Notes under the pieces: model-generated
What the model was told of the DNA's origin: nothing
What the model saw: only the letters and a program-made list of their open reading frames with translations
The model's database searches: none
Assembly: GCF_900100365.1 (NCBI RefSeq)
Contig: NZ_FNKU01000001.1
Span: 2,604,001-2,668,000, forward strand
DNA from: Pseudomonas cannabina
GTDB lineage: Bacteria; Pseudomonadota; Gammaproteobacteria; Pseudomonadales; Pseudomonadaceae
DNA length: 64,000 nt
Direction of reading: 5' to 3'
Program-made: the position numbers and the translations under genes
In this document: one piece after another, positions 6,280 through 39,728 of the stretch
How positions within the stretch are numbered: position 1 is the first letter of the stretch
Layout: every line of letters starts with the position of its first letter

Positions 6280-7278
6280 TCAATGCCCTTGCAGAAACGC
6301 CGCCGCCTGATCCAGCAACAGCATCGGATTCTCCGCCTTGTGGATATCGACCGACAGCAACTGACGGAAGCGCCGCGCGCCGGGGAAACCCAGGCCCAGA
6401 CCGAGCATATGCCGGGTGACATGGTGCATGTTGCCACCGCTGACAATGTGCGCCGCAATGTACGGCCGCATCGACTCCAACGCATCGTAACGGCTGATGA
6501 CCGGCGCAGTGCTGCCGAACAACTGCTGGTCCACATGGGCCAGCAAATACGGATTGTGATAAGCCTCACGCCCCAGCATCACACCATCGAACGTCTGCAA
6601 ATGCTCACTGCACTGCTCAAGCGTCTTGATACCGCCGTTGAGGACGATTTCCAGCTCGGGAAAGTCAGTCTTCAACTGCGCAACCACGTCATAGCGCAGC
6701 GGCGGGATATCGCGGTTCTCCTTGGGAGACAACCCCTCGAGAATCGCGATGCGCGCATGCACCGTAAAACTCTGGCAACCCGCCTCCTGCACTTTGCCGA
6801 CGAAATCACACAGCTCGGCATAACTGTCACGGCCATTGATACCGATCCGGTGCTTGACCGTGACCGGAATACCGACCGCATCGCGCATGGCCTTCACACA
6901 ATCAGCGACCAACTCCGGATGCGCCATCAGGCACGCGCCGATCATATTGTTCTGCACCCGGTCACTCGGACAACCGACGTTCAGATTGACTTCGTCGTAG
7001 CCCGCTTCTTCAGCCAGCCGCGCACAGGCCGCCAGATCCGCAGCCGTGCTCCCGCCCAACTGCAACGCGAGCGGATGCTCGGTGTCGTCGTGACGCAAGA
7101 ACCGCTCACGGTCGCCGTGGAGCAAGGCACCGGTAGTGACCATCTCGGTGTACAGCAATGCGTGCTTCGAGAGCAGTCGCATGAAGTAGCGACAATGGTG
7201 GTCAGTCCAGTCCATCATCGGGGCGACGGAGAAACGGCGGGAGAAAGAGGTCGTTTTATCAGGGGTTGCGGATGACAT
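6280..7278 (-). CDS. dusA: tRNA-dihydrouridine(20/20a) synthase DusA
   Basis: The 332-residue FMN-dependent enzyme reduces U20/U20a in the D-loop of tRNA. The family hallmarks are present: SVAPMMDWTDHHCRYF at the N-terminus, NLNVGCPSDRVQ with the catalytic Cys, the substrate/FMN segment TVKHRIGI, VHARIAILEGLSPKENR (DusA-specific) and the phosphate-binding GGI near residue 210. Length is normal for DusA. In other pseudomonads dusA sits next to tal; here about 4.3 kb of accessory DNA separates them. Confidence 0.95.
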   Translation of the reverse strand: MSSATPDKTTSFSRRFSVAPMMDWTDHHCRYFMRLLSKHALLYTEMVTTGALLHGDRERFLRHDDTEHPLALQLGGSTAADLAACARLAEEAGYDEVNLNVGCPSDRVQNNMIGACLMAHPELVADCVKAMRDAVGIPVTVKHRIGINGRDSYAELCDFVGKVQEAGCQSFTVHARIAILEGLSPKENRDIPPLRYDVVAQLKTDFPELEIVLNGGIKTLEQCSEHLQTFDGVMLGREAYHNPYLLAHVDQQLFGSTAPVISRYDALESMRPYIAAHIVSGGNMHHVTRHMLGLGLGFPGARRFRQLLSVDIHKAENPMLLLDQAAAFLQGH

Positions 7279-7388
7279 TAGCGTCGGTAACTCGGAGGGA
7301 AATATCGCGTTAGTCTAGCATTGTGCCTGGTGATGCAACCATGTTGGCTGGTCGAAGCCGTTATGGATGGTAATAAAATCGAATGCGC

Positions 7389-7520
7389 TCAAATCGGCTT
7401 TATATCGGCTCGCAAAAATAGCATCCGAACGTCATCAGCTGCCTTGGGGTTTTCCAGCGCAATGTAATTAGCTTCGTCTTCCAGATTCTTGAATGCTTTT
7501 GCCAGCCATTCAATCCGCAT
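7389..7520 (-). pseudogene. ParE/RelE-type toxin remnant (truncated)
   Basis: An ATG frame gives only 43 codons, starting MRIEWLAKAFKNLEDEANYI and followed by ALENPKAADD. That is the beginning of a ParE/RelE-superfamily toxin, which is normally about 90-100 residues. After the ADD motif the reading changes to unrelated sequence and stops at 7389. It follows the antitoxin remnant 33 bp upstream in the usual antitoxin-toxin order. I infer a toxin whose 3' two-thirds has been deleted, so no active toxin is made. Confidence 0.65.
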
Positions 7521-7553
7521 TCTGGCTAAGGCGCCGGGCGCGCATCGCCGCGC

Positions 7554-7749
7554 CTACTCATCGCTAGCGAAACTGCCTTCGTGAGCTTGCTTCACCGCGT
7601 GCTCGATCTGCGCGATCAGCGTCTTTTCGTGCTCGATGTAATCACGAAGAACATCCATCGCCATAAAGCTCGCGCTTTGCCCTTTTTTTGGCGAGGTCAG
7701 TAAGAGAGTTGGAAAGGTCTTCCGGGAGGTCCAGCGATATACCGGTCAT
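7554..7749 (-). pseudogene. ParD/CopG-type antitoxin remnant (frameshifted)
   Basis: The frame opens MTGISLDLPEDLSNSLTDLA, an N-terminal ribbon-helix-helix antitoxin signature, and continues in another frame as SASFMAMDVLRDYIEHEK and then IAQIEHAVKQAHEGSFASDE before a TAG. The switch falls at an A7 tract (minus strand, around 7683-7689). Read straight, the protein ends after about 35 residues. The total length of 196 bp (not a multiple of 3) fits a single-base indel in a gene of about 65 codons. With the truncated toxin downstream this is a dead toxin-antitoxin module. Confidence 0.65.
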
Positions 7750-7800
7750 GGCAATATGGGCCTGATCATGGCTCTCCGTACCCAAAGCTATAAGCACCCT

Positions 7801-25464: not shown

Positions 25465-25779
25465 GAACCAGCAAGATACTGCGCTCGATCAAGACCACCA
25501 GGTCATTAAGTGGTCACTGAAGTCTGGATGGTTCCCGACGACCTGCAAACTGAACGTTTTTTACCAGCCTCACAGCCCGCCATAGCAGTGACACATCGCA
25601 ACTTCACCTACATGTCAAGCGTCAGCTAACACATGGCAAATCGCCGAAACGGTTGTTTTTGAGCACTGTTACACATACTGTTACAAGTGTGCATCGCCAT
25701 TCGCACACACGTAGCGGCGATGTAAACGGGATAACAACGACAACGGATTCCAAGCCGACGAGCCTGAGCGAGTAACTAA
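25465..25779. other. Intergenic region between apbE and the citrate symporter
   Basis: A 315-base divergent spacer. I see no RNA gene or palindromic repeat. It is AT-richer than its surroundings around 25660-25690 and should carry the promoters for both flanking genes; no boxes could be assigned with confidence. Confidence 0.4.
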
Positions 25780-27138: not shown

Positions 27139-28306
27139 TCAGACCTTGCGCTGCCATGGCCGAAAGCTGAGCCAAAGCAGAAAACCCGGCACTTGCAGGG
27201 CAATCATCAGCCCCAGCGACCATTGATAGGCCTCAGGCGGATGCCCCGCCCCCTGTGCGACCGGCCACAGATTGAGCACCACGCCCATCAGCCATTGCAG
27301 GCAAAACGCGAGCACGAACACCACCAGATTGAAGGATGAACTCACCCTTCCCGCCAGCTCTGGCGACACCGACTGCGCGACGATGGCGTAATTCATGGTG
27401 GTCGAGGTGCCGAAGAAGCTGAAGCCCATGGCAATCAGATAAGGCGATACCGGCAAGTCGCTGACCATCAGCACCTGGAAGCCGATGAAGATCAGCATCC
27501 CGGTGCCGCAGATCATGATCGGCTGTACGCCGAACCTGCGCAGGTAATCGGTGATCGCGCCGAACGTCAGGGACCCCGCCACCATCGCGATGGCCCCGAA
27601 CAACAGCACACTGGCCATCGCGGAATCACTCAAACCTGCCATGTCGCGCAACCACGGCCCCATCCACAATGACAGCACCGACATGTAGATGGCGTGTGCG
27701 AACACCGAGTACAACGCCAGACGCCAGAACGTCCAGGACGAGTACAGTTTGCCGACTGCGGCGAACATATCGCCGTAGCGAGTGTTTTTGCTCTGGTAGG
27801 TTTTGGGCACGCTGAAATGTATGACCACGGCCACGCAAAAGGTCAGCAGCGCCAGGACCAGAAACGCTTCGCGCCAGGTCAACCAGCTCAGCAGCGCATG
27901 CTTTGATCGCACTCATCAGCGAGCCCGCCACGCCCAGGCCGATCAGACCACGCCCGATCAACAGACCTGCCTCGCTGCTGGAGACACTGAAAATGACCGA
28001 ACCGGCGACCGCAAATAAAAGCATCGGCGCCTGTACGCTGCGTGGACCATAACGGTCGAGCATCACGCCAAGCGGAATCTGCGCGGCGGCGAAGGTCAGA
28101 AAGTACACGCCGGTCAGCAAACCCAGACTGCTGGCAGGCAAGCTCAGGTCGGTTTGCAGATCGACGTAGATCACCGCATTGACGGTACGAAACAGGTAGG
28201 AAACGAAATGCCCCAGGCCAAAGGGAATGAAAATTGTCAGAAACAGCAGGAAGAAGCTGCTCTTGAGCTTTTGCTGCGAACCGTCCATGGCCGAACTGTT
28301 ATTCAT
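27139..28306 (-). pseudogene. MFS transporter pseudogene at the 3' end of the tgl operon (internal deletion and frameshift)
   Basis: The first about 135 codons read as an MFS permease (FGLGHFVSYLFRTVNAVIYV, GLGVAGSLMSAIKA). The remaining about 250 codons continue in another frame (SWLTWREAFLVLALLTF onward to the natural end). At the junction (about 27897-27902, minus-strand AAAGCATGCG) the usual segment with helices 4-5 is missing, roughly 30-35 residues, and the deletion length is not a multiple of three. Straight translation stops shortly after. The ATG lies inside the tglB stop (8-bp overlap), so it was coupled to tglB. It probably exported or imported the pathway product; that role is inferred from position. 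Confidence 0.8.
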
Positions 28307-30746
28307 CACGCGTTACTCCATTGTCCCTAAAGGTTGTACGTATTTCACAACAGAAATGCCCGCGCGCTTCTTCGAGCCACAGTTGGTCCGGAGCAGGACA
28401 CATCTCGGAAAACTTGACGTGCCCCGCTTTCTTCATCGAATTACTGACACCGTCGAGTGACAACGGGTTATCGAAATCAATGAAAATCGGCTTGGGTTCG
28501 ATATCGATCTTGGCGAACACATAACGGGGCAAACCGTGCTCGACGGCCCACGCTCGCCATGCCAGCACGTCGTCGAGCTTGTCCACACTGAATTCAGAGC
28601 ACGGCAGTTGCTCTGGACTGAACCACCACGAGGCGCGTTTGTACAAGGTCTTGCCCAAGCCTATTCGGCGTCGGTCGTTCTTGGCCACGACGCTGCCAGC
28701 CAAGGCAAAACCCAGTCGGTGCATAGGAGTGGGATACACGCACACCAAGTCTTCGCTGAATTGGCCGGCAATATCCTCGACGCGCAAACGTCCCTCGCTC
28801 ATGACAAGACGAGCACGGCCGACGGCAAAGCGCTGATCCGCCGGCACGCAACCGCCGCCAGAAGGCAGTATCAGTTGTTGGTAGCACTCGAGCAAAGGCC
28901 AATCGATATGCGAACGCTGATAACTGTCCGGCGAGTCGGCAAGCACCAGACGAGGTCCGTCGAATATTTGCCGAACCTCCTGCTCGATCTCTTTATTGAA
29001 CGGTCCGAAAGGCTCGGCTACTGGCTGACTGAGGGTGTGCACGCCCGGATGGACCTCTCCCAGAATGATTGAGTAGTCGCCCTGGTTCAGCGCGTCTGTC
29101 GAGGTACTGGAAATCAGGAAATCCGGAGAGTGAAAGTGGCTGCCAAATACGCTGAACGTCCGAACATCCAGACGCGTGTTCAGCTCGACAATCAGCCGCT
29201 CTATGTCCTCATGGGTCAACTGCACCTGTTCAGGGTCGTGTTTATCGCTCAGGACCTGCTGCCAGGCGTCTGCCAGCACTGCGTCCAGTTCCTCGATGAT
29301 GCCCGCCTCGGCGTGTGCAATTACTGGTTGCACAGCGCCAAGAAAGGCCAGGAAGTTCACCGGATTATGCTCGTCCTCTGCCTGCAGACGTTGCCATACC
29401 TGAGCGTAGAAACCATTCAGTTGCCGAGCGCATGCCTTGATCAGCCATTGATGAATGCGCATCAACGGCGCCAGATCGGCATTGACCTGATCAAGTAAGG
29501 CGCCACCCAGGCTGATATCGATATTGCGCGAACAATCCTCGTAGACCGGGTAGCGACCGACATACATGGCGCCGCTCTCACGCGAAATATCCACGCCGGC
29601 TTCGCCAAGCAGCCGGTTCAGCTTGTCGAGGCTGGCAATGCGTACGGCCAGATCGCCTGTCGCATAGTCTTGCCGAATCGCTTCAAGGCCCGACAGACGT
29701 TCATGCCACTGAGTGCGGAAGTCATCAGACAGGCGCGCGTCGGCCAGAAAAGCGTGCAGCACCTGAACAGGCTTTCGTTCCCTGGGGGAAATCTGCCAGC
29801 CGCGACGCACAATCTGCTGGGCGACCAGATGATCGATCAGGTCGCGCAATTGCCCGGCGCTGACATCCTGCAACTCGGCCTGCAACCCGAACAGGGTCGG
29901 TGCCACAGCGCTCTGGCACTGAATGTAACCCAGCACTCTGGCCGTCAAGGCACTGACCTGACGACGTTTGTTGACGGGCAGATGCAACGTGTCTTGATTC
30001 AAAAAACAGCCCGGGTTGAGTTGCAACGGCATGAACTGCACATCAACGCAATGGCGATTCAACTGCTCGACCAGCCGCTGTACAACCCAGCTCTCGAAAA
30101 AGGTATGGCGTTCTCTGATCCAGCCGGGGCCGTGCTGCGTGATACGAACATGCTCGACCTGCGTACGATCAAACCGTCCCCAGGCCAGCGGGCCGAAAAA
30201 ACTCGACGTATCATTTTTTGAACAGAATCGCTGTGCGTAGCTCCAGGCCAGGCGCAGTTTCTGCTTCTTGCGGCTGTCAGTTCTCGCATGGCGCTCTTGC
30301 CTGAGCTCCTGAAGCCGGGTCAGCGCGGTCGGGTTGGAAATGAACACGGCCTGCTCAACGTCTTCGTCGTCCACGAAATCAATCAGGGCCTGCCGCGCGC
30401 GTTCGAGAAACACGGCATATTCCTCATCCACTTCGACACGTTGCTTGAGCCGGCCAAGCCGCTCGTTCCAGTGCGCCAATTCATCCACTGCGTCATCACG
30501 CAGCGCCTCCGGAAGATCAGACACTTGCAGCGGCAGGTTTTCATTCAGCTTGCGGATCAGCTTGCGACAGGCCTGAGACGAGTGGCTTATGGACTTCTCT
30601 AACAGGCTGTCGCGTAGAGTATTCAGGGAGCGATAATCGGTTTCAAAATCCTTCAGCAACGGCAATTCGGCCATTTTCCCCAGGCGGGTCAGGTGATGCA
30701 CCGCAAACCCGGTCGAGCGAAGCCAGAAATAGAGTGAGCTTTCCAT
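28299..30746 (-). CDS. tglB: TglB, peptide aminoacyl-tRNA ligase (LanB-like) adding Cys to TglA
   Basis: An 815-residue member of the lantibiotic dehydratase N-terminal (Lant_dehydr_N) family without the C-terminal elimination domain. The core RFCSKNDTSSFFGPLAWGR corresponds to the LanB segment that handles glutamyl-tRNA. In the described P. syringae pathway this enzyme uses ATP and Cys-tRNA to add Cys to the C-terminus of TglA. The context (tglA, tglH, tglI just upstream) makes the assignment strong. The frame is intact. It starts 3 bp after tglI stops and overlaps the downstream MFS start. Confidence 0.9.
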   Translation of the reverse strand: MESSLYFWLRSTGFAVHHLTRLGKMAELPLLKDFETDYRSLNTLRDSLLEKSISHSSQACRKLIRKLNENLPLQVSDLPEALRDDAVDELAHWNERLGRLKQRVEVDEEYAVFLERARQALIDFVDDEDVEQAVFISNPTALTRLQELRQERHARTDSRKKQKLRLAWSYAQRFCSKNDTSSFFGPLAWGRFDRTQVEHVRITQHGPGWIRERHTFFESWVVQRLVEQLNRHCVDVQFMPLQLNPGCFLNQDTLHLPVNKRRQVSALTARVLGYIQCQSAVAPTLFGLQAELQDVSAGQLRDLIDHLVAQQIVRRGWQISPRERKPVQVLHAFLADARLSDDFRTQWHERLSGLEAIRQDYATGDLAVRIASLDKLNRLLGEAGVDISRESGAMYVGRYPVYEDCSRNIDISLGGALLDQVNADLAPLMRIHQWLIKACARQLNGFYAQVWQRLQAEDEHNPVNFLAFLGAVQPVIAHAEAGIIEELDAVLADAWQQVLSDKHDPEQVQLTHEDIERLIVELNTRLDVRTFSVFGSHFHSPDFLISSTSTDALNQGDYSIILGEVHPGVHTLSQPVAEPFGPFNKEIEQEVRQIFDGPRLVLADSPDSYQRSHIDWPLLECYQQLILPSGGGCVPADQRFAVGRARLVMSEGRLRVEDIAGQFSEDLVCVYPTPMHRLGFALAGSVVAKNDRRRIGLGKTLYKRASWWFSPEQLPCSEFSVDKLDDVLAWRAWAVEHGLPRYVFAKIDIEPKPIFIDFDNPLSLDGVSNSMKKAGHVKFSEMCPAPDQLWLEEARGHFCCEIRTTFRDNGVTRDE

Positions 30747-30749
30747 AGG

Positions 30750-31559
30750 CTACAAAGGCTTCCTTATCGCGTTAAGCTGTTCCAGCCTGTCGAGCAGCGC
30801 CAGGTCTGCGCTACCCGGCACGGACGCCGAGTCCGAATTGATCAGCATGAACAGCCCGGCAGCGGACTGAGGTTGCTCCAGGCAGTTGTAAAGCCGGGCA
30901 GCCTGCGCGTTGATCAAAGTAAACTTGTGACGAGCCTGAAGCGTGGGAAGGTAGATCAGCACCTGCTCGGTGTTCTCGGGCAGACGTGTCAGGCCCAACT
31001 GATCCTTCTGTCTGAGCCAGCCAGACAGGGCAAAACGTGTCTCGTAAAGACGAGCCATTGAGGTGCGGTGATAACGGTTGTCTGCCGGCAATGACTCAGG
31101 ACCGACCAACCCCCGGTACAGGCGAACCGATTCGCGCTCCAGCCGCATCAGATCAAGGATTTCAGGATAACCCTGCAGCTCATCCGCCTCGGCAAGGAAA
31201 CCCAGTACATCTTCACAATAGGTATAGACCTGCGGCCCGTAATCGCGCCACTGCCTGTCACGCAGGAAGGCCTTCGATTGCGCATTCAGGTCCACATTTA
31301 TGTGCAGCAACGCCCGCAACGACAAGGGCGCCCCGGTCTCCAGCGCGTTCAAAAAAGAGTTCACCAGCCGGAACTGATAGTTCTCGACGAACCATTTGAC
31401 GCGGTCAAACTGCTGCGCATACACCGAGAGGATCTTGCTTTCTGACTCGCTGAAACCTGACAACCAGTGCGTGGCATCGGTAGCCGAAAACAACTGCGCC
31501 TGAAGGCGCTCATCGCGCAGAACGCGCCGCCACAGTTTCCATACCTGTTCAGCTTCCAT
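30750..31559 (-). CDS. tglI: TglI, partner of TglH in Cys beta-carbon excision
   Basis: A 269-residue soluble protein started at MEAEQVWKLW, overlapping the tglH stop by 11 bp. It has no motif I could name from a general family; the assignment rests on position between tglH (DUF692) and tglB and on resemblance to the known gene order. In the described system TglI binds TglA-Cys and forms the TglHI complex with the iron enzyme TglH, which removes the beta-carbon of the added Cys as formate. The frame is open throughout. It contains helix-rich regions and few Cys. Confidence 0.8.
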   Translation of the reverse strand: MEAEQVWKLWRRVLRDERLQAQLFSATDATHWLSGFSESESKILSVYAQQFDRVKWFVENYQFRLVNSFLNALETGAPLSLRALLHINVDLNAQSKAFLRDRQWRDYGPQVYTYCEDVLGFLAEADELQGYPEILDLMRLERESVRLYRGLVGPESLPADNRYHRTSMARLYETRFALSGWLRQKDQLGLTRLPENTEQVLIYLPTLQARHKFTLINAQAARLYNCLEQPQSAAGLFMLINSDSASVPGSADLALLDRLEQLNAIRKPL

Positions 31560-32463
31560 ACTGACGCTCCTGCGGATGCCTGTTGTAACGATTCCAGATT
31601 GCCTGAGCACGCTGGACATCCCTGACAATCATCGACTCGTCGGACGCATCCATGATCCTCGTCTGGGCATGATGCGCCTGCCCCTGATACTCAAGAATCA
31701 CAGCAGAGGGCTGTGCACGCGAAAGCAGGTCTTCGTACAAGTCCCAGACCGGCTCGGGCACGCAGGCGTCATGCCAGTCGTGATACAGACCGCCGTGCCA
31801 GCTTCCTCCGGCCAGATGCACCGAAATCACCTTGTCCAGCGGCAGCGTATCCATGTAGTCCTTGAGATCGAAACCTTTCAGATTGAGGTGGTTGGTGTAA
31901 ATGTTGTGCAGGTCAAGGTGAAGAAAAGTCCCTGAGCGCTGCACCAGTCTTGCCAGAAACTCGGCCTCACGCATTTCGGCGCCTGGGCATTCAAGGTAGT
32001 AGGCGGCATTTTCATGAGCCAGCGGCATGCCATAAAGCGCCTGCAACGACTGTGCGCGATCGGCACAACGCGCCACTTCGGCTGCGGAGAACTGAATGGG
32101 ACTGCTCCAGATATCCAGCCAGGACTGGTCCCCATAGAAACAATGGTTGGCCACCCAAGGGCTGTTGAGCATTTTTGCCAGAGGTACATGGCGCTGCACC
32201 GCCGCTGTTTCTTCGAGGGCACTGAAACCAAAATCGCAGCCGTAATTGGAGTGAGCCAGCAAGGTAAATTTTTGCCCTAGCCGCTCAATCATTGCCTGGG
32301 CAGAAGGCTTGATAATCTGCGGGCCATCCATGGGCGCCATGATGTTATCGAGCAAAATTTCCAGAATATCCACTTGGATATCCTCGAATGGAAACCAGTC
32401 CAGTATTTCGGGGTTGTACTGGATACCCACACCGATAGGCGCGGGCTTGACGAAATCAGGCAT
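31549..32463 (-). CDS. tglH: TglH, DUF692 iron enzyme (Cys beta-carbon excision)
   Basis: A 304-residue TIM-barrel DUF692 (MbnB-like) protein started at MPDFVKPAPIGVGIQY. Conserved metal-ligand regions are visible: LLAHSNYGCDFGF, NHCFYGDQSW, PLAHENAAYY, LHLDLHNIYTNHLN, HLAGGSWHGGLYHDWHD and ILEYQG. Family members bind two or three irons and oxidise Cys residues of peptides. In the tgl pathway TglH with TglI converts the C-terminal Cys of TglA to 2-mercaptoglycine. All ligand positions I can judge look intact. Confidence 0.9.
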   Translation of the reverse strand: MPDFVKPAPIGVGIQYNPEILDWFPFEDIQVDILEILLDNIMAPMDGPQIIKPSAQAMIERLGQKFTLLAHSNYGCDFGFSALEETAAVQRHVPLAKMLNSPWVANHCFYGDQSWLDIWSSPIQFSAAEVARCADRAQSLQALYGMPLAHENAAYYLECPGAEMREAEFLARLVQRSGTFLHLDLHNIYTNHLNLKGFDLKDYMDTLPLDKVISVHLAGGSWHGGLYHDWHDACVPEPVWDLYEDLLSRAQPSAVILEYQGQAHHAQTRIMDASDESMIVRDVQRAQAIWNRYNRHPQERQYGS

Positions 32464-32538
32464 GGCTAACACTCGCACTGATGAAAGAAGCCCTCCTGCG
32501 TATCCCTACAATCCGGCACGCAAGAGGGCATGGCGCAC

Positions 32539-32691
32539 TCAGGCAAAGACCTTGCTCTCGATGACTTCAATGTCATCCAGGTCAAACTCTTCAAACAACG
32601 CCTCCTCTGTGGCCTGCGGAGTGTTTTCGAGATCTTTTACATCACCAGACGCTTGCTGGTTTTCTACGGACTGCACGTTGGGTTGTCCCAT
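32539..32691 (-). CDS. tglA: TglA, 50-residue scaffold peptide for 3-thiaglutamate
   Basis: A short gene with a clear GAGGA ribosome site 7 bases before its ATG. The 50-residue peptide begins MGQPNVQSVENQQAS and ends IEVIESKVFA. It is acidic, with EEALFEEFDLDDIEV as a likely helical recognition stretch, and has no Cys of its own. In the described pathway Cys is added after the last Ala and the modified residue is later released, leaving TglA to be reused. It starts 21 bp after the left end of the IS element and lies upstream of tglH by 75 bp. Confidence 0.9.
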   Translation of the reverse strand: MGQPNVQSVENQQASGDVKDLENTPQATEEALFEEFDLDDIEVIESKVFA

Positions 32692-32712
32692 GGGTAAATC
32701 CTCACTGGTTAT

Positions 32713-32729
32713 GAGGGTGTAGACAAAAT
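32713..32729. repeat. Left terminal inverted repeat of the IS
   Basis: GAGGGTGTAGACAAAAT, a perfect 17-base complement of 33874-33890. The transposase stop codon overlaps its last base. Confidence 0.92.
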
Positions 32730-33832
32730 CATGTAGTGAGTCGGCGCGCGAGTATTCGAGCCTCGGCCAACCAAACCCATGCCTCGCTTACCGCAAAAAG
32801 GCGATCATGATGCATGATCAGTCGCCGAGCTCTCTCATTCCAGGCATGAGTTCGCTCCACTACCCATCGCTTGGGCATGACCACAAATCCAGTCTGAACA
32901 GGCTCCACGGAAAATAGATCGCCTTGTTCAGAGTGCCATTGCCCTGTTCTTCTGTTATTCGGGCCACGGATCACTTGAACATCGATAGCGTGCAGTTGAT
33001 GGGTGCGCTGTGCCCATTTTCCTGCGTACGCACTATCAACAAAAAGCGTGCTCAGTGACGGATATTTTTCCTTCGAGTACGCCACCGCATCATCCGCCGC
33101 GTCACGATCCTGCACGCTTGCAGCACTGATACTGACAGCCAGCAGCAGGCCCAATGTATCGACAATCAGACTTCGTTTACGCCCCTTCACTTTTTTGCCT
33201 GCGTCGTAGCCGCTGTCACCGCCTTGAGGAGAACTGCGGGTCGACTGTGAATCCAGGATCGCTGCTGACGGGCTGTCAGCGCGTTCTTCCCGCTCACGCC
33301 ATTGAGCTCGCAAGCGATCATGCATTTGCTCGAACTTGCCTTGAGCGCTCCACCGGCGGAACGTTTTGTAGACATTGTCCCAATGAGGAAAATCGCGGGG
33401 TAGCATTCGCCATGAGCACCCCGTGCGTACGACATAGCAACAGGCTTCCAGCAACGTGCGCCGAGAGTGAAGCGGTGGCACTCCTCGTCCGCCCTGGCTT
33501 TCAAACAGGTCGGCGACCAGTGCCCACTCGGTATCTGTCAAGCAACTCGGATATAGCTGCTCCGGCAGTTGGCGGCGGTGGGTTTCATTGTAGCCATAGG
33601 CTTTATTAGGTTCAGGTGACTGAAAACTTCCCTTGGCCCGCTGCTTTACACGCGTAATCCCTGCCATTTTCAACGCTTTTGCAAAGGTGTCGGGATGCGC
33701 AGTGATACCGGTTTCGGCGAAGAATACGAGCGCCAATTCGGCCTGGCTGGAATAGGGCTGTGCATGAGCGAGTTTCACCAGCACGGGATAGTGCTCGGCG
33801 GCAATCGAGCGAGGACGTCCGGTTTTAGGCAT
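32729..33832 (-). CDS. IS5-family transposase
   Basis: A 367-residue transposase. An N-terminal helical domain (about 1-70, MPKTGRPRSIAAEH) precedes the IS5-type DUF4096 region (CLTDTEWALVADLFE, CSWRMLPRDFPHWDNVY). The DDE core has AILDSQSTRSS (first Asp), TLFVDSAYAGK (second Asp) and VVERTHAWNERARRL (Glu with the Y/W-R spacing typical of IS5). No stop or frameshift interrupts it, so it is probably active. Its N-terminal extension makes it longer than the usual IS427-group transposases, which are often made by frameshifting; here one frame suffices. Confidence 0.93.
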   Translation of the reverse strand: MPKTGRPRSIAAEHYPVLVKLAHAQPYSSQAELALVFFAETGITAHPDTFAKALKMAGITRVKQRAKGSFQSPEPNKAYGYNETHRRQLPEQLYPSCLTDTEWALVADLFESQGGRGVPPLHSRRTLLEACCYVVRTGCSWRMLPRDFPHWDNVYKTFRRWSAQGKFEQMHDRLRAQWREREERADSPSAAILDSQSTRSSPQGGDSGYDAGKKVKGRKRSLIVDTLGLLLAVSISAASVQDRDAADDAVAYSKEKYPSLSTLFVDSAYAGKWAQRTHQLHAIDVQVIRGPNNRRTGQWHSEQGDLFSVEPVQTGFVVMPKRWVVERTHAWNERARRLIMHHDRLFAVSEAWVWLAEARILARRLTT

Positions 33833-33846
33833 GGCTTGAGGGCTAT

Positions 33847-35025
33847 TCAGACAAGGGAGTGAAAGTTTAATTTATTTTGTCTACACCCTCTATGAAATAC
33901 ACGAAAAAGCGTCTGCAGCACGAAGCCCCACACCAACACCCAGCCAAGACAGGTGATCAATACAGTGCTCAGATAAAGGCGTTGGAGCCGGACTGACGTT
34001 TCACAAGGTGCCCCGCGCAAGCGTGCTTTCAAATAGTTGAAAGAGCGCTGCCTTAACCGGGGCTCGTTGATGAGTTCGGTGATGGCCAGGTAAGTGTCGC
34101 CATTGAACATCGGCAACAAGGTTGGAATCAGAGAGATGAACGATGCCACAATCATCACAATCGACAGCGCAAGCAAGTCACTTTGCGCTTCACCGTAAGC
34201 AGCCCAGATCACAATGCCTGCAGTGGCGTAAACAAGGCTGACCAGTGGCCCGGCCAAAATGGTGACGATGCGCTGATACCTCGGCAACGAACTCCATTGT
34301 TCTTGAACCGGCCGCACCCACCCGGTGGCCAGCAACAGATAAATGCCGATCCCGAAATCACTGACTTGAACATTGTAATGTCGACAGGCCAGGGCATGCC
34401 CGAACTCGTGCAGTGCGATAGAACTGAGGATGACCGGAAAATGCCACCACAGCCATTGATTGCTGTGCACATACACCGCGAGAACATCTTCTTGAAATGC
34501 GCCGAAGTGCATCCCCAGGTAGACGTAGCTGACCAAACACGCCGCAAGCATCGCCAGACAAAACGGTACGCTGCATATCCAGCGCACGCTGGGGTAAACA
34601 TAGTCCAGGCCCGGCTGCGGATTCATCTTGACCAGGTTGATCAGCAGGTATTTCTTCAAAGGCCCATAGGTAATACCGGTCGCGGGATCACGAAGCTTTT
34701 CAAGATCGCCATCTGCCCCCGACAGAATATTCAGACTCAATAGGCGACTTTCAAACTGCACCAGTTTCGTCTGACTGACCTTGATACGGTGCCGGGTTTC
34801 AGCGTATCGGGAGATCTCTTCGTGTGTGGATACACCATCAAAAAGGCGGACCAGTGCATACTCGGTTTTACCCAACTCAAAACCGATATCGTTACTGGGG
34901 TCGTAAAGCTTGTAGCGCAACCGGCCGTCTGCCTCCACACGCTCGCTGACAACAATATCGTTGCGCAGACAGGACGCGATTGAAGTCTGTCTCATGACCT
35001 CGGACACTTCGGAAGCGTGTGTCAT
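33847..35025 (-). CDS. tglG: TglG, membrane metalloprotease releasing the modified residue (3' end altered by IS)
   Basis: A 392-residue site-2-type (M50) metalloprotease. About residues 15-110 look like a PqqD-like peptide-recognition domain (FELGKTEYALVRLFDG). Multiple membrane helices follow, with the zinc motif H-E-x-x-H in ALHEFGHALACRHYN and a late FNGDTYLAI carrying the third-ligand Asp. In the pathway TglG cuts the last residue off TglA. The IS replaces the final two native codons (NQ) by 14 codons read from the IS end, so the catalytic part is untouched. The start overlaps the tglF stop by 4 bp. Confidence 0.88.
   Translation of the reverse strand: MTHASEVSEVMRQTSIASCLRNDIVVSERVEADGRLRYKLYDPSNDIGFELGKTEYALVRLFDGVSTHEEISRYAETRHRIKVSQTKLVQFESRLLSLNILSGADGDLEKLRDPATGITYGPLKKYLLINLVKMNPQPGLDYVYPSVRWICSVPFCLAMLAACLVSYVYLGMHFGAFQEDVLAVYVHSNQWLWWHFPVILSSIALHEFGHALACRHYNVQVSDFGIGIYLLLATGWVRPVQEQWSSLPRYQRIVTILAGPLVSLVYATAGIVIWAAYGEAQSDLLALSIVMIVASFISLIPTLLPMFNGDTYLAITELINEPRLRQRSFNYLKARLRGAPCETSVRLQRLYLSTVLITCLGWVLVWGFVLQTLFRVFHRGCRQNKLNFHSLV
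33874..33890. repeat. Right terminal inverted repeat of the IS
   Basis: ATTTTGTCTACACCCTC, the exact complement of the left repeat. It now forms part of the altered 3' end of tglG. Confidence 0.92.
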
Positions 35026-35939
35026 GATGGCAACACCAGCGCCCGGAAGCGCTCCCGGTAGTAACTGTCCAGGCGCTCACGCCCTTGCGCCTTGACACGT
35101 TCGTGCTGCACATCATCCGACGGGGCTGCGCATCGACCGAGGACGAAAACCGCGCCAGGTCGAGTAGGCCCGCACAACGGTTGCTCGGTTATCAGCAGCG
35201 GCTCCCAGCCGTGCATACGCATCAGCAGTTCGATGCTGGTGCCGCTGAGATAACGCCGATGATTGTGGGTCAGCATGCCCTGCTCCAGGCCGTGACCCAG
35301 GGCGCGGCCTTCAATCAATAACAGACCGTTTTCCGACGACGCCTGCCGACAGCGCTGCATGACGCAATGCACGTCGTACATATGTTCCAGCGAGCCATTG
35401 ATGATAATCAGATCGACATCGCCTGCGGCGTCCATTTCTTCGGCCGCTGTCAGCTCGATATTCAGGCCGATCTGTTTTTCGTATTCCACATAAGCGCGAT
35501 CAGGGTCATTGCCGGTAACAGACCAGCCCCTCTTGGCAAAAGGGATCATCAGGCCACCGGCTGAACATCCGACATCCAGCAGGCGACCACTCTCTGGCAG
35601 GTATTCGCGCAGGCTCTGACGCAGGTATTCTCCACGACGAACCTGGTCGAGAAAAAACGCTTTTTCCGGCGCGCTGTTGCCGAACAGCTTCAAGCGATAA
35701 AACTTGTCGTAGTAGTCTTTGTAAAACTGCGCATCAAAACGATATTTTTGAAAAATATGGCCGCACGCCTGACACCCCAACACAGGCAAATCAACGCCGT
35801 GGGGTTCAGGACCGCAGATACGTGGCAGCAACACCTCATGGTGTTCACTGCCGCAGAGTTCGCAGTCCAGTGCAACGGCTTGATAACCGCTGTCCATGTG
35901 CAACACATCCAGGTAATGGCTGATAGCCCAATCGTTCAT
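35022..35939 (-). CDS. tglF: TglF, carboxy-SAM-dependent carboxymethyltransferase
   Basis: A 305-residue class I methyltransferase started at MNDWAISHYLD (AGGGACG ribosome site). An N-terminal Cys-rich module (DCELCGSEHHE, GCQACGHIF) probably binds zinc. The SAM-binding motif I is LLDVGCSAGGLMIPFAK, with an acidic loop NDPDRAYVEYE. In the described pathway TglF transfers a carboxymethyl group from carboxy-SAM to the thiol left on TglA by TglHI, building the thia-glutamate side chain. The frame is intact. The substrate assignment comes from gene context. Confidence 0.87.
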   Translation of the reverse strand: MNDWAISHYLDVLHMDSGYQAVALDCELCGSEHHEVLLPRICGPEPHGVDLPVLGCQACGHIFQKYRFDAQFYKDYYDKFYRLKLFGNSAPEKAFFLDQVRRGEYLRQSLREYLPESGRLLDVGCSAGGLMIPFAKRGWSVTGNDPDRAYVEYEKQIGLNIELTAAEEMDAAGDVDLIIINGSLEHMYDVHCVMQRCRQASSENGLLLIEGRALGHGLEQGMLTHNHRRYLSGTSIELLMRMHGWEPLLITEQPLCGPTRPGAVFVLGRCAAPSDDVQHERVKAQGRERLDSYYRERFRALVLPS

Positions 35940-35952
35940 CGCAACGTCCCTG

Positions 35953-36694
35953 TTACTTGATGCAGAAGAAACCTTCAAAACAGATGTATTTGAAAATGCT
36001 CATTACGTCCTTGAAACCGGCCCGAGCGAGCATGTCCTGATTACCGGCCGTGGAGAACGGTTCCAGCACACCTTTAAGACTACGCGTCTTGGCCAGGATC
36101 TCGCTCGGCGTATAGCCCTGCTGCATCTTGTAGTCGACATACAAACTGCTGATCACATCCTGAAACCGAGCATCCGGCCCCCTGACTTTCTCGAACAGCA
36201 CAAATGCCCCCCCAGTTCAGAGACTCGTAAATACGATTGAACAGCTCCTGGCGAACGCGGGGATGGACAAACTGAACCGTATAATACGCGACGATGAAAT
36301 CGCTCTTCTCATACGGAAAGGTGAGGATGTCGTCGGTCACAAAGGTGACGTTACTGATGGGCGCACAGCCGAGTGATTGATTGGCTTGTTGAGTCATGGC
36401 CTCTTCGACATCGATACCCACCCATTTGCCTGAACGCCCGTGACGTTCTGCCAATTGCCGTGTCAATGTGCCGGTCGAACTTCCAAGTTCATAACAGACG
36501 CTGTCAGCCTTGATAAAGAAGTCGCTCAAGGAAAGAACGATATCGTGACCGTCCTTGTACTTGGGAACCGATTTCGAAACATGCGAGTCGAAATGTTTGG
36601 GCGTGTCACCGCCAAAACTCCAGGCTGCGTTATTTGAAGCCAGTCCATCCCCGACCACTTCAAGACTTATTACTTCAGGCGCATTAACAGGCAC
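35953..36694 (-). pseudogene. tglE: TglE, CmoA-like carboxy-SAM synthase, frameshifted in a G7 tract
   Basis: A GTG start with an AAGGAG site gives a CmoA-like protein: FDSHVSKSVPKYKDGHDIV, SAM motif VCYELGSSTGTLTRQL, VTDDILTFPY and VAYYTVQFVHPRVRQ. At a G7 run (36207-36213) the frame shifts; one more G would continue WGGAFVLFEKVRGPDARF and on to the natural end at 35953. Read straight, the last third is replaced by unrelated residues and the product is 204 long. In the pathway TglE makes carboxy-SAM. The loss is a one-base indel in a homopolymer, so a sequencing error or phase variation is possible. Confidence 0.85.
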
Positions 36695-36777
36695 AATGAA
36701 TCTCCTTGCTTACCTTGCACAGGAACACCGGAAACTGCAGTGCGTCACGCGATGCAGTTTGACTGAAACGTTTACGG

Positions 36778-37989
36778 TCAGGCTATGGCGGCGACAGCCA
36801 CCTTGCGCCAGGCAAGACGGCCCAACGCAATACACCCGTTTAAAAGGGCTACCGAGAGAATCGTGTACAGCAGTGAGGGCATGCCGTAAGCCACGATTAT
36901 TTTTCCGGCCAACAGTGGAAAACCGAACACGCCTACAAAGTAAGACAAACTGAATAACAACAAGGACTGTGCGGTGAGTCCGTTGGGCGCTTCATTGGCC
37001 GCCAGGCCGTTGATCACCGAATACGTCAAGCCATAACCCACGCCAAGAATGATCGCGGCCAACAAATAACTGAATGGCGACTCAACCGAAAACACAAACA
37101 TCAGTATCGAAACAATCATCAGGGAGGTCAGTACGCAGGAAGACAGGTAAGCATCACGCTTGACGATGAACCCGGCAATCAACAATCGGCAAGAGATGGC
37201 TGCACACATGAATCCGAGGAAAAACAGCGAATAGTCCAGATGATGCAATGCGGCGTAGGAGGTCTGAAAGTTGGAAAGCCCGCCGAAGATTGCGCCGCCC
37301 AATCCCACCATCACGATAGGAAAGAACGCCTTGGAACGCAGTACACGAGCGGCAGCACCTGTAGTGATGCGGCACACGGCCACAGGCCCGAGAACAGCCT
37401 GTTGCAGCCTGATTTTCGGAGCTATCAGAAAAAACACGACTGCACCCAGCAGGCTGGCAGCAGCCGCGACGACGAACGCCGATTCAACCGGATACCCCAT
37501 TGCCACCGCACCGCGCCCTGCCAAAGGCCCGGTACCGATCCCACTCATCATGCTGCCGGACAGCAAAGCAAAATACTTCACCCGACGCGCAGGCTCGATG
37601 ATCATTGCAACAATGATCGGCCCCAGTGTGTAGAACACACCCCAACCGAAACCCAGTATCAGACCGAATATCAATAATGCCGGGCCATACGTCGGGGTCA
37701 TGGCAAACCCGATGCATGCAATCATCAACGTCAGACCTCCGGCAGCGATAGCCCGGGGCGCACCGATGATATCGGTCAGGTGACCTGAAAAAATAACGGC
37801 GAGAAATGTGCTCAGCATGGCCACTGAAATCACTGTGCCGGCGTCAGACTCGCTTCCGCCATGAGAGCCCAGCATCAGGGCCAGTAGAAAAGTGGTGCCG
37901 TAAGACAGGGACAGCAGATAGCTGGCCAGGCAAAACAGGCCGAACAGCCCCTTGGTCGAAGGGGTATTTTCAGGCGCTTGCGAAGACAT
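36778..37989 (-). CDS. MFS transporter in the tgl operon
   Basis: A 403-residue, 12-helix MFS permease (start MSSQAPENTPSTKG, AAGGA site 9 bases before). The MFS loop motif appears as GHLTDIIGAPRAIAAGG, and a central cytoplasmic loop sits near residue 190-215. It resembles OFA/monocarboxylate-type carriers in general shape. It lies between the decarboxylase gene (37 bp upstream) and tglE (83 bp downstream) on the same strand, so it likely moves a pathway intermediate or product, perhaps an exporter. The substrate is not evident from sequence. Confidence 0.8.
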   Translation of the reverse strand: MSSQAPENTPSTKGLFGLFCLASYLLSLSYGTTFLLALMLGSHGGSESDAGTVISVAMLSTFLAVIFSGHLTDIIGAPRAIAAGGLTLMIACIGFAMTPTYGPALLIFGLILGFGWGVFYTLGPIIVAMIIEPARRVKYFALLSGSMMSGIGTGPLAGRGAVAMGYPVESAFVVAAAASLLGAVVFFLIAPKIRLQQAVLGPVAVCRITTGAAARVLRSKAFFPIVMVGLGGAIFGGLSNFQTSYAALHHLDYSLFFLGFMCAAISCRLLIAGFIVKRDAYLSSCVLTSLMIVSILMFVFSVESPFSYLLAAIILGVGYGLTYSVINGLAANEAPNGLTAQSLLLFSLSYFVGVFGFPLLAGKIIVAYGMPSLLYTILSVALLNGCIALGRLAWRKVAVAAIA

Positions 37990-38026
37990 GTAGGACATTC
38001 CTTATCGTTTGATAACAGTGCTGCTC

Positions 38027-39433
38027 TCAATAACCAGCCACCGCGTGGTGTAAGGCATTGATCACAATTGCGACATCACTGCGTGTGGTCATCCAGTTAC
38101 AGACAGCCAGACGAAATACCTTTTCCCCGTTGTACGTACTGGGCGTAAGAAACAGTGCAACTGTGGCATTGATTCTTTCCAGCACTGCCACGCTGTGCGC
38201 GTCATGATCACGCCCGCCGACACGTCGGCAGCGAAACATCACGATGTTCAAATAGACAGGGCACAACACGTCGTAGTATTCACACCCGTCAATCCACGAA
38301 GCGATCTGGCGTACAACATCACAATTACGCTCTACCAACTCGCGGTAACCCGACTTGCCGTAAGCCATAAGCGTCATCCATAACGGCAACGCACGATAGC
38401 GACGCGACTGTTCGACACCTCGGTTCATGAAAGCAGGAAGCTCGCCCCCCATGGGCACATAGGGCGCGTCAGCGGAAAAGCTCCGTTCATGAAACGCAGT
38501 ATGTCGGGTCAGGGCAATTCCACAGTCATAGGGAACGTTAAGCCACTTGTGAGCATCCGCCGTTATCGAATCAGCACGCTCCAGCCCCTCGACCAAGTGT
38601 TCGTAACGAGGAGAACAACGAGCAAAGGCACCGAATGCCGCATCGACATGCAACCACGCGTTATACCTCATGCATAAATCAGCAATACCATTGAGGTCGT
38701 CGAAATCACCGCTATTCACGGTACCGGCGCTGGCCACTACAATTCGAGAAGTAGAGGCACTGCTTTTCAGCGCTTCTTCCAGGTGTTGAATATCCATGGC
38801 TTCACGATCAGGCAAACTGCGTATTGACACTATATTTTTGCGCCCGATACCCAGCACACCCAGACTTTTGATAATACTTGAGTGGGCAGACGCCCCGAAT
38901 ACCGCTATCGGAGGGGCTGCTGCAATTCCTTCGTGAGCAATGCTGACTCCCGCCTGCTCACCGCACCACTCACGAGCGCTGGACAGCCCCACCAGATTTG
39001 CCGCGGTCGCCCCGGTCGTCAAAACGCCCTGAAACAAACCCGCCGGAAGCTTCAGCAGGTCACTGATGAACGTCAGCACTTGAGCTTCGATAAATGCAGC
39101 GATCGAATGGCGCTCAGTGGCGACGTTCTGGTCAAGGACGGAAACCAGCCAGTCTCCGGCAAGTGCAGCGGGCGTCACCCCGCCTGTCACGAAGCCATAG
39201 TACCGAGGGCCTGTGCTGCGACTGTGCCCATCAGCGTAGCGCTGCCAATAAGTCCTCAGAGCATCCAGGCAACCGAGCCCCTCCTCGGGCATTTCCGCTT
39301 GCTGAGTCAGGACATCAGGGCGCGTGTCGACCGCAGCAGCGGTCTGTGCGCCAGACAGAAAGTCGAGCGACAAGCTGCGAAGCTGCGTCAACAGCTCGGG
39401 GATACAGCGCTCATCATCCAAAATGCACGACAT
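38027..39433 (-). CDS. Group II PLP-dependent decarboxylase
   Basis: A 468-residue pyridoxal-phosphate enzyme of the AADC/glutamate decarboxylase/diaminobutyrate decarboxylase group. The PLP-binding Lys is in ITADAHKWLNVPYDCG, the cofactor aspartate in WLHVDAAFGAFA, and the substrate-face loop in HSRSTGPRYYGFVTGG. The start MSCILDDERCIPE at 39433 is preferred over a TTG 12 codons upstream. It is the first gene of the tgl operon here. It may act on 3-thiaglutamate or another amino acid; nothing in the sequence fixes the substrate. Confidence 0.85.
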   Translation of the reverse strand: MSCILDDERCIPELLTQLRSLSLDFLSGAQTAAAVDTRPDVLTQQAEMPEEGLGCLDALRTYWQRYADGHSRSTGPRYYGFVTGGVTPAALAGDWLVSVLDQNVATERHSIAAFIEAQVLTFISDLLKLPAGLFQGVLTTGATAANLVGLSSAREWCGEQAGVSIAHEGIAAAPPIAVFGASAHSSIIKSLGVLGIGRKNIVSIRSLPDREAMDIQHLEEALKSSASTSRIVVASAGTVNSGDFDDLNGIADLCMRYNAWLHVDAAFGAFARCSPRYEHLVEGLERADSITADAHKWLNVPYDCGIALTRHTAFHERSFSADAPYVPMGGELPAFMNRGVEQSRRYRALPLWMTLMAYGKSGYRELVERNCDVVRQIASWIDGCEYYDVLCPVYLNIVMFRCRRVGGRDHDAHSVAVLERINATVALFLTPSTYNGEKVFRLAVCNWMTTRSDVAIVINALHHAVAGY

Positions 39434-39728
39434 TTCGATCCGCCCATGGCCTGCCGAATGAAGCCTCAACCGCGACCAAAACGCCGCCCGTCGCCTTCTT
39501 GAATAAGCTTATAACTGTTATTCATTAGGCAGCGCAATAGGATCCAAAATAGTCACCACATCTTGAAAAACACGAAAAATTCGCTTTATTTCCGTTAAAA
39601 CATTTGATCATCTTGAAATATGCAGAAATAAATCATTGGAACGATAAATTCCGATGTCGCAGGTGAATATTCCAATTACGACATGAGCGCATGACTTTCA
39701 TGTAAATCACGAAGGTCAGGTACAAAAG
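39434..39728. other. AT-rich promoter region of the tgl operon
   Basis: A 295-base non-coding stretch that is strikingly AT-rich (notably 39530-39720) compared with the GC-rich chromosome. It lies upstream of the decarboxylase and must hold the operon promoter. I could not assign an operator. The base composition fits horizontal acquisition of the cluster between the citrate-symporter terminator and gap. Confidence 0.6.

What the first reader, a model, noticed from the sequence alone, without database searches (positions are those of the whole stretch)
27139..39433. A tgl (3-thiaglutamate) peptide-scaffold cluster that is half decayed
All of tglA, B, E, F, G, H and I can be recognised, in a minus-strand operon with two MFS genes and a PLP decarboxylase. 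Known: a TglA-type scaffold receives Cys from TglB, TglHI removes its beta-carbon, TglE/TglF build the carboxymethyl group, TglG releases 3-thiaglutamate. Seen here: an IS between tglG and tglA, a tglE frameshift and a broken MFS gene, while the scaffold, ligase, excision, methyltransferase and protease genes stay open. The cluster may be lost, partly used, or making something else.
Basis: partly seen in the sequence, partly recalled or inferred. Interest (0 to 1): 0.9.

Follow-up and report, generated by a model that had tools for sequence, protein, structure and literature searches.

The report
3-Thiaglutamate gene cluster, newly damaged
This is a known kind of bacterial gene cluster that builds the glutamate look-alike 3-thiaglutamate on a small reusable peptide; it looks recently imported and only lightly damaged, and much of the apparent decay turns out to be nearly silent or to belong to a neighbouring gene.

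Summary
In detail: tglA, B, E, F, G, H, I, a PLP decarboxylase and two MFS genes lie on the minus strand at 27139-39469. TglH differs from the crystallised ES4326 protein at 2 of 304 residues, TglI at 4 of 269. 'Half decayed' is too strong. (1) The IS is ISPsy19, one of at least 40 copies in this genome; it swaps two tglG codons for 14 and leaves the tglA start intact. (2) The broken MFS gene is resident in tgl-free relatives and broken in the nearest sampled one. (3) Only tglE is a clear pathway lesion. An unbroken protein identical to both window pieces exists, so the break is recent, unstable or an assembly error; an intact housekeeping CmoA could supply the same donor. The cluster is an 11.4-kb island exchanged between species, with dN/dS 0-0.24. 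P. cerasi carries other lesions, tglF among them, so carboxymethylation is hit in both. The decarboxylase-MFS pair recurs in tgl clusters of two branches and is unassigned.

The parts
28298..39721 (-). tgl island: 11,424 bp in place of about 72 bp in the tgl-free genome G326
   Evidence: blastn of window against L061+L062; identity to P. cerasi 96.2-98.8% inside, 91.6-94.0% and 76.8-93.4% in the two flanks; GC 0.548 against 0.602 and 0.603 in flanks
38027..39433 (-). PLP-dependent group II decarboxylase, open; start at MSCILDD as in P0001 (the longer ORF starts at 39469)
   Evidence: PF00282 159.5 bits; H196, D276 and K308 invariant in 50 rows; model pLDDT 90.7; Foldseek top hit 7xin, 28% identity
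36778..37998 (-). MFS transporter MFS2, open, next to the decarboxylase
   Evidence: PF07690 95.4 bits; same pair in L006, L012, L013
36080..36694 (-). tglE, 5' piece (204-aa ORF, in frame to about codon 163)
   Evidence: TIGR00740 69.9 bits, model 14-161; residues 1-160 identical to P0246, 19-160 identical to unbroken P0179
35953..36201 (-). tglE, 3' piece (82-aa ORF in another frame)
   Evidence: TIGR00740 40.9 bits, model 159-236; 81 of 81 residues identical to the tail of unbroken P0179
35022..35978 (-). tglF, carboxymethyl transferase (CmoB-like role), open
   Evidence: PF13489 54.8 bits; 62.7-65.5% to L007-L013, no stop in those matches
33847..35025 (-). tglG, M50 membrane protease, open; last 2 residues replaced by 14 from the IS
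   Evidence: PF02163 44.7 bits; match to L006 ends at residue 378 of 392, L006 protein is 380 aa
32713..33890 (-). ISPsy19 (IS5 family), transposase ORF 32729-33832 in the operon's direction
   Evidence: 17-bp perfect inverted ends; 3-bp target duplication against L006; 99.7-100% to annotated ISPsy19 in plasmid records; at least 40 full-length copies in own genome
32539..32691 (-). tglA, 50-aa scaffold peptide with FDLD motif and C-terminal Ala
   Evidence: NF038377 90.3 bits, cut-off 45; last 18 residues equal the published ES4326 19mer without its Cys; A1
31549..32463 (-). tglH, MNIO (DUF692) subunit; start MPDF as in PDB
   Evidence: PF05114 147.3 bits; 302 of 304 residues identical to 8hci_D, published iron ligands and Asn73 unchanged (residue list from PMC10880893)
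30750..31559 (-). tglI, RRE partner subunit; start MEAEQ as in PDB
   Evidence: NF058584 497.3 bits, cut-off 450; 265 of 269 identical to 8hci_C
28299..30746 (-). tglB, peptide aminoacyl-tRNA ligase (PEARL), 815 aa, open
   Evidence: PF04738 86.4 bits; 98% to P0121, 34% to the Tistrella mobilis record P0173
27139..28309 (-). MFS1, broken by a 98-bp deletion; resident gene with a chimeric 5' part
   Evidence: two MFS_1 pieces; deletion and breakpoint; directly after gap in 9 of 30 loci, all nine tgl-free

Best explanation
This is a horizontally exchanged tgl (3-thiaglutamate, pearlin) island of the P. syringae complex, at the very start of decay and probably still able to work at least in part. 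Shown by sequence: the scaffold (TglA), Cys ligase (TglB), beta-carbon excision pair (TglHI), carboxymethyl transferase (TglF), releasing protease (TglG), one transporter (MFS2) and a decarboxylase are open and show purifying selection against P. cerasi; the dedicated carboxy-SAM synthase TglE is out of frame here. Inferred: TglB loads Cys on TglA, TglHI turns it into 2-mercaptoglycine, TglF carboxymethylates it with carboxy-SAM made by the housekeeping CmoA instead of TglE, and TglG releases 3-thiaglutamate in reduced amounts. Transcription into tglAHIB has to cross ISPsy19, whose transposase points the same way. The loss of MFS1 is an event in a resident gene, not decay of tgl.
For: Near identity to the characterised ES4326 proteins. 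dN/dS 0-0.24 over the island genes against P. cerasi, with dS 0.06-0.11 against 0.32 in gap, hence a shared, recently exchanged block (profile). Island edges against a tgl-free genome. Both window tglE pieces are identical to parts of an unbroken protein, P0179, and the 5' piece to a differently broken one, P0246. Intact CmoA, 292.8 bits over a 193.3 cut-off. tglG loses two codons only, and the sequence from the IS to the tglA start equals P. cerasi. MFS1 directly follows gap in 9 of 30 loci, all tgl-free, and is broken in the one nearest to the window. The haemolytica and lactucae loci show no MFS1 within 20.8 kb.
Against: No expression or product data. CmoA is only 28% identical to TglE and its donor flux to TglF is untested. 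An 1178-bp IS may be polar; no promoter-like site was found inside it and one weak terminator-like site on the operon's strand was (over the whole region promoter-like sites were below the shuffled mean, 3 against 6.6, and terminator-like sites 20 against 14.5, sd 4.4). P. cerasi shows that clusters in this complex do break (tglF stop, decarboxylase frameshift), which fits loss of the trait. In five other tgl clusters MFS1 does follow tglB, so it may still have served tgl. The records behind P0179 and P0246 are not shown, so their strains are unknown.
Confidence: 0.5

Rival explanations
1. A dead cluster: the tglE break and IS polarity together already stop production, and the open genes are only waiting to decay.
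For: Frame break in tglE, IS between the two halves of the operon, at least 40 ISPsy19 copies mark a genome under IS expansion, P. cerasi decaying independently in tglF and the decarboxylase.
Against: The other tgl genes are open, dN/dS well below 1, tglA start region intact, CmoA present. dN/dS covers time before the breaks and cannot show present function.
Confidence: 0.3
2. The tglE frameshift is an assembly error and the tgl pathway genes are all intact in the organism.
For: An unbroken TglE identical to both window pieces exists; the break sits at a short G run, the only G or C run of 7 or more in the window; long-read assemblies are known to fragment genes (PMC12007338, abstract and outline seen).
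Against: A second, differently broken protein at the same spot (P0246). About 40 kb aligned to G326 shows 26 small indels outside one repeat hit, 10 of them in two gene spacers; the other 16 were not mapped to genes, so this control is weak. The IS and the 98-bp MFS1 deletion are not errors of that kind.
Confidence: 0.12
3. The cluster is used, but to make something else: either peptide-bound 2-mercaptoglycine or its breakdown products because carboxymethylation has been dropped, or a decarboxylated derivative made by the PLP decarboxylase.
For: Both tgl clusters of the complex read here, plus P0246, are hit in the carboxymethylation pair (tglE in window and P0246, tglF in P. cerasi), while A, H, I and B stay open in both clusters. 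The decarboxylase-MFS2 pair occurs with tgl in two TglB branches, and 15 near rows share R84 and T118-E119-R120-H121, each rare (at most 3 of 29) in distant homologues.
Against: Very few events; tglE plus tglF are 17% of the cluster's coding length, so the pattern is suggestive only and was noticed afterwards. The decarboxylase itself is broken in P. cerasi and not found in five clusters. The residue signature is shared by 6 of 6 intermediate homologues of unknown context.
Confidence: 0.08

Closest known systems
tgl cluster of P. syringae pv. maculicola ES4326 (3-thiaglutamate, founding pearlin)
   Same: tglA, B, E, F, G, H, I; TglH 302/304 and TglI 265/269 identical; TglA C-terminus identical over 18 residues
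   Different: Here tglE is out of frame, tglG has a new 14-residue tail and ISPsy19 splits the operon. Whether ES4326 carries the decarboxylase, MFS2, MFS1 or the IS could not be seen (the 2019 paper is not held).
tgl cluster of Pseudomonas cerasi (L006)
   Same: Same site between gap and MFS1, same gene order, 96.2-98.8% DNA identity inside the island
   Different: No IS, tglE and MFS1 open; but tglF has an in-frame stop after 76 codons and the decarboxylase is frameshifted
tgl clusters of P. protegens FD6, LD120, P. fluorescens 28B5, Irchel s3h17, P. umsongensis (L007-L011)
   Same: tglE-F-G-A-H-I-B then MFS1; most proteins 57-85% identical, TglA matches 50-81%
   Different: No decarboxylase or MFS2 match in the 20.9-kb loci
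tgl clusters of P. haemolytica and P. lactucae (L012, L013)
   Same: decarboxylase, MFS2, tglE-F-G-A-H-I-B; decarboxylase 63-64%, MFS2 75%
   Different: No MFS1 match in the 20.8-kb loci
tmo cluster of Tistrella mobilis (3-thiahomoleucine)
   Same: Same early logic: carrier peptide, Cys PEARL, MNIO pair (PMC9303977, passages read); TglA scores 29.2 bits on the TmoA model
   Different: TmoA cut-off of 70 not reached; carboxymethylation genes here instead of the methyltransferase TmoS and radical SAM enzyme TmoD

Membership tests
tgl / 3-thiaglutamate pearlin cluster | TglA carrier with F[N/D]LD motif | tested here: met
   NF038377 90.3 bits over 45; FDLD present, C-terminus equals published 19mer
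tgl / 3-thiaglutamate pearlin cluster | Cys-adding PEARL TglB (LanB-like) | tested here: met
   Met for homology only: PF04738 86.4 bits; 98% to P0121. Amino-acid specificity not testable
tgl / 3-thiaglutamate pearlin cluster | TglH MNIO with its iron ligands | tested here: met
   PF05114 147.3 bits; only 2 differences to 8hci_D, none at H71, N73, H107, E151, D184, N187, H216, D229, H231, E258 (residues)
tgl / 3-thiaglutamate pearlin cluster | TglI RRE partner | tested here: met
   NF058584 497.3 bits over 450; 265/269 to 8hci_C
tgl / 3-thiaglutamate pearlin cluster | Intact TglE (carboxy-SAM synthase) | tested here: not met
   Two frames; unbroken equivalents P0179 and L006 exist
tgl / 3-thiaglutamate pearlin cluster | TglF transferase | tested here: met
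   Open, methyltransferase domain, 62.7-65.5% to L007-L013
tgl / 3-thiaglutamate pearlin cluster | TglG M50 protease | tested here: met
   PF02163 44.7 bits, HEFGH read in the ORF; C-terminus altered
tgl / 3-thiaglutamate pearlin cluster | Produces 3-thiaglutamate | not testable with these tools
   Needs LC-MS
ISPsy19 (IS5 family) | Sequence identity, inverted ends, target duplication | tested here: met
Group II PLP decarboxylase | PLP lysine and cofactor-binding Asp and His | tested here: met
   K308, D276, H196 invariant in 50 rows; fold match to DOPA, tryptophan and glutamate decarboxylases. Their catalytic roles are recalled, not tested
Group II PLP decarboxylase | Known substrate | not testable with these tools
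   No NCBIfam cut-off reached by any of 8 families; best RhbB model 162.9 against 900

The most novel reading that the evidence does not exclude
In the P. syringae complex the carboxymethylation step (TglE/TglF) is being dropped repeatedly while scaffold, ligase and excision enzymes are kept, so that some strains deliberately stop at peptide-bound 2-mercaptoglycine or its reactive breakdown products; and the tgl-linked PLP decarboxylase with its MFS partner is an undescribed extra branch that decarboxylates or destroys 3-thiaglutamate.
Probability: 0.08. Interest if true: 0.7.

Novelty: new member of a known kind. Interest (0 to 1): 0.3.

Why it matters
It shows that a characterised natural-product pathway moves as an 11.4-kb block between P. 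syringae species at one chromosomal site and is broken independently in different strains, so strain-level presence of tgl does not equal production. It also separates tgl genes proper from a resident transporter, and points to one untested enzyme, the tgl-linked PLP decarboxylase, whose substrate could change what the end product is thought to be.

Tried and rejected
Idea that tglE is a phase-variable gene with a conserved long G tract: rejected, since eight of eight relatives L006-L013 lack such a tract at that place. Programmed frameshifting: rejected, because the matches of both tglE pieces lie in one frame in eight of eight loci L006-L013. MFS1 as a tgl-specific exporter lost in decay: rejected as the main reading, because it sits after gap in tgl-free relatives, although five other tgl clusters also have it after tglB. 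Short direct repeats at the ends of the MFS1 deletion: none of 7 bases or more found at those ends in a scan of the L006 region, although the two blast blocks overlap by 8 bases in the window. A HrpL box in front of tgl: none; the only match in the window lies before apbE (the consensus is recalled). tgl on plasmids: the 15 records with a TglB match are Streptomyces and Kitasatospora at 23.7-35.8% identity. A second sample of 293 relatives gave only the own genome. Naming the species of the window was not attempted.

Counts to read with care: one search scored 40 of 87 candidate places, so 40 ISPsy19 copies is a lower bound. One search gave loci for the best 30 of 397 matching genomes, and looked only 1.5 kb to either side of gap. 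In one search the TglI query began 23 residues before the true start; five of eight loci show one stop in that match. One search shows an open TglI of 268-269 residues in three other genomes that I take to be three of these five by size and place; L007 and L010 were not re-checked. In one search several matches, TglA above all, cover part of the gene, so 'open' means no stop or frame change in the matched part. The TglB tree used 15 of the 57 proteins plus the window and eight loci; P0121, P0122 and P0123 carry no decarboxylase label because their neighbours were not seen; the label needs 4 changes, of which well-supported branches force 3. Alignment A2 used 49 of the 120 decarboxylase homologues listed.
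Full report
What is there. On the minus strand, from 39469 to 27139, lie a PLP decarboxylase, an MFS transporter (MFS2), tglE, tglF, tglG, an IS, tglA, tglH, tglI, tglB and a broken MFS gene (MFS1). Strong terminator-like stems follow gap (39768-39731) and MFS1 (27132-27099) on this strand. Membership in tgl is firm. TglA and TglI pass the curated NCBIfam cut-offs for exactly these proteins. TglH and TglI differ from the crystallised ES4326 proteins at 2 of 304 and 4 of 269 residues, and none of the iron ligands named in PMC10880893 (passages read) is touched. The last 18 residues of TglA equal the published ES4326 peptide (PMC9016710, introduction and passages read). TglB carries the lantibiotic dehydratase N-terminal domain, TglG an M50 protease domain and TglF a methyltransferase domain. 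In 398 genomes of the genus the TglI family rings in 5, own genome included; a scan of species genomes gave 8 named loci.

The known pathway, from the papers named above and PMC10491745 (passages): TglB adds Cys to TglA, TglHI excises the beta-carbon as formate, TglE makes carboxy-SAM, TglF carboxymethylates the thiol, and TglG releases 3-thiaglutamate. One review says that it may act as a phytotoxin (PMC12141560, passages); PMC9016710 calls its physiological role unknown.

The insertion. The IS is ISPsy19: 17-bp perfect ends, 3-bp target duplication, 99.7-100% identity to annotated copies. The genome holds at least 40 full-length copies; 40 of 87 candidate places were scored. It falls in the end of tglG: the first 378 residues stay, two are lost and 14 are gained, while the sequence from the IS to the tglA start codon is the same as in P. 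cerasi. Its transposase reads in the operon's direction. Whether it blocks or drives transcription of tglAHIB cannot be told from sequence; promoter-like and terminator-like sites in the region were close to what shuffles give.

The MFS1 break. In 9 of the 30 loci fetched at the gap gene an MFS1 homologue directly follows gap; all nine genomes lack TglI. Two of 30 (own and P. cerasi) have the decarboxylase there instead, and 19 show neither within 1.5 kb. MFS1 is open in 8 of those 9 and broken by a different, 7-bp deletion in L032 (genome G326), the closest of the sampled relatives by the gap gene (97%). In the window, the first 150-300 bp of MFS1 resemble P. cerasi (95-96%) and the rest G326 (95.7-100%); the 98-bp deletion lies in the G326-like part. 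So MFS1 is best read as a resident gene into which the tgl block recombined, and its break need not be decay of tgl.

The island. Against G326 the tgl block is 28298-39721, 11,424 bp in place of about 72 bp. Against P. cerasi the block is 96.2-98.8% identical in 500-base steps while the flanks are 91.6-94.0% and 76.8-93.4%. dS is 0.06-0.11 in island genes, 0.32 in gap and 0.65 in the 3' part of MFS1; dN/dS in the island genes is 0-0.24. GC is 0.548 against 0.60 in the flanks. The block was therefore most likely exchanged between species after they split and was under purifying selection until recently.

The tglE break. The two pieces hit the CmoA model at positions 14-161 and 159-236. In eight of eight loci L006-L013 the matches of both pieces lie in one frame. 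A database protein, P0179, is unbroken and identical to the window over 142 of 142 compared residues of the 5' piece and 81 of 81 of the 3' piece; P0246 is identical over 160 of 160 and is broken at the same spot in another way. The tables do not show which strains these two come from. The break is thus recent or unstable, or in one of these records a sequencing error. About 40 kb of alignment to G326 shows 26 small indels outside one repeat hit, 10 of them in two spacers; the rest were not mapped to genes, so this does not settle one site. The genome has an intact CmoA (292.8 bits, cut-off 193.3), the housekeeping maker of the same carboxy-SAM. It is 28% identical to TglE. That it can feed TglF is inference.

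Parallel decay. P. cerasi has an open tglE, tglG, H, I, B, MFS2 and MFS1, but a stop after 76 codons of tglF and a frameshifted decarboxylase. Outside the P. syringae complex, L007-L013 show no stop or frame change in the matched parts of E, F, G, A, H and B (for TglI see the caveat in Tried and rejected). So both tgl clusters of the complex that I could read are damaged, in different genes, and in both the carboxymethylation pair is hit. With so few events this is a lead only.

The decarboxylase. It is adjacent to MFS2 in the window, L006, L012 and L013 and was not found in L007-L011. On the TglB tree the label falls in two branches. Fifteen near rows share R84 and T118-E119-R120-H121, each found in at most 3 of 29 distant rows, while 6 of 6 intermediate rows have them. 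The model is confident (pLDDT 90.7) and nearest to DOPA, tryptophan and glutamate decarboxylases. A dicarboxylic substrate such as 3-thiaglutamate is a guess. Searches for papers that join 3-thiaglutamate, tgl or pearlin with a decarboxylase gave none that I recognised as describing it. Of the 5 papers I saw passages around the tgl terms in three (PMC12141560, PMC10491745, PMC8719888) and only the listing of the other two. Of the 3 papers, PMC9303977 and PMC9016710 hold the word decarboxylase nowhere in the main text and the third was seen as a listing only. The founding 2019 Science paper is not held, so the gene may be described there.

Verdict. A real tgl cluster, closely related to a characterised one, recently imported, with one clear pathway lesion that may be bypassed. 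Interesting as strain-level natural history, but of a known kind.

Noticed in passing
window 25507-25535 (-): A match to the HrpL-box consensus (recalled; expected 0.18 by chance) lies just before the ApbE ORF 25464-24373; PMC3879358 (passages) reports that the ApbE gene PSPTO_2105 is HrpL-regulated in several P. syringae strains. The tgl island lies close by, beyond one MFS gene and MFS1.
   Followed up: partly
own genome, at least 40 places: ISPsy19 has at least 40 full-length, nearly identical copies, 38 on C1 and 2 on C3: a recent burst.
   Followed up: no
P0158, P0162, P0163, P0166; P0189, P0191, P0196, P0204: TglB relatives of 43-46% in Enterobacter, Xenorhabdus, Moritella and Serratia, and TglE relatives of 74-78% in Serratia, Moritella and Pantoea, suggest tgl-like clusters outside Pseudomonas.
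   Followed up: no
L006:3343-4781 and 6832-7788: The P. cerasi tgl cluster has its own lesions: a frameshifted decarboxylase and a stop in tglF.
   Followed up: partly
L032 (G326), about 3125-4374: The tgl-free relative G326 has MFS1 broken by a 7-bp deletion inside the interval that is deleted in the window.
   Followed up: partly
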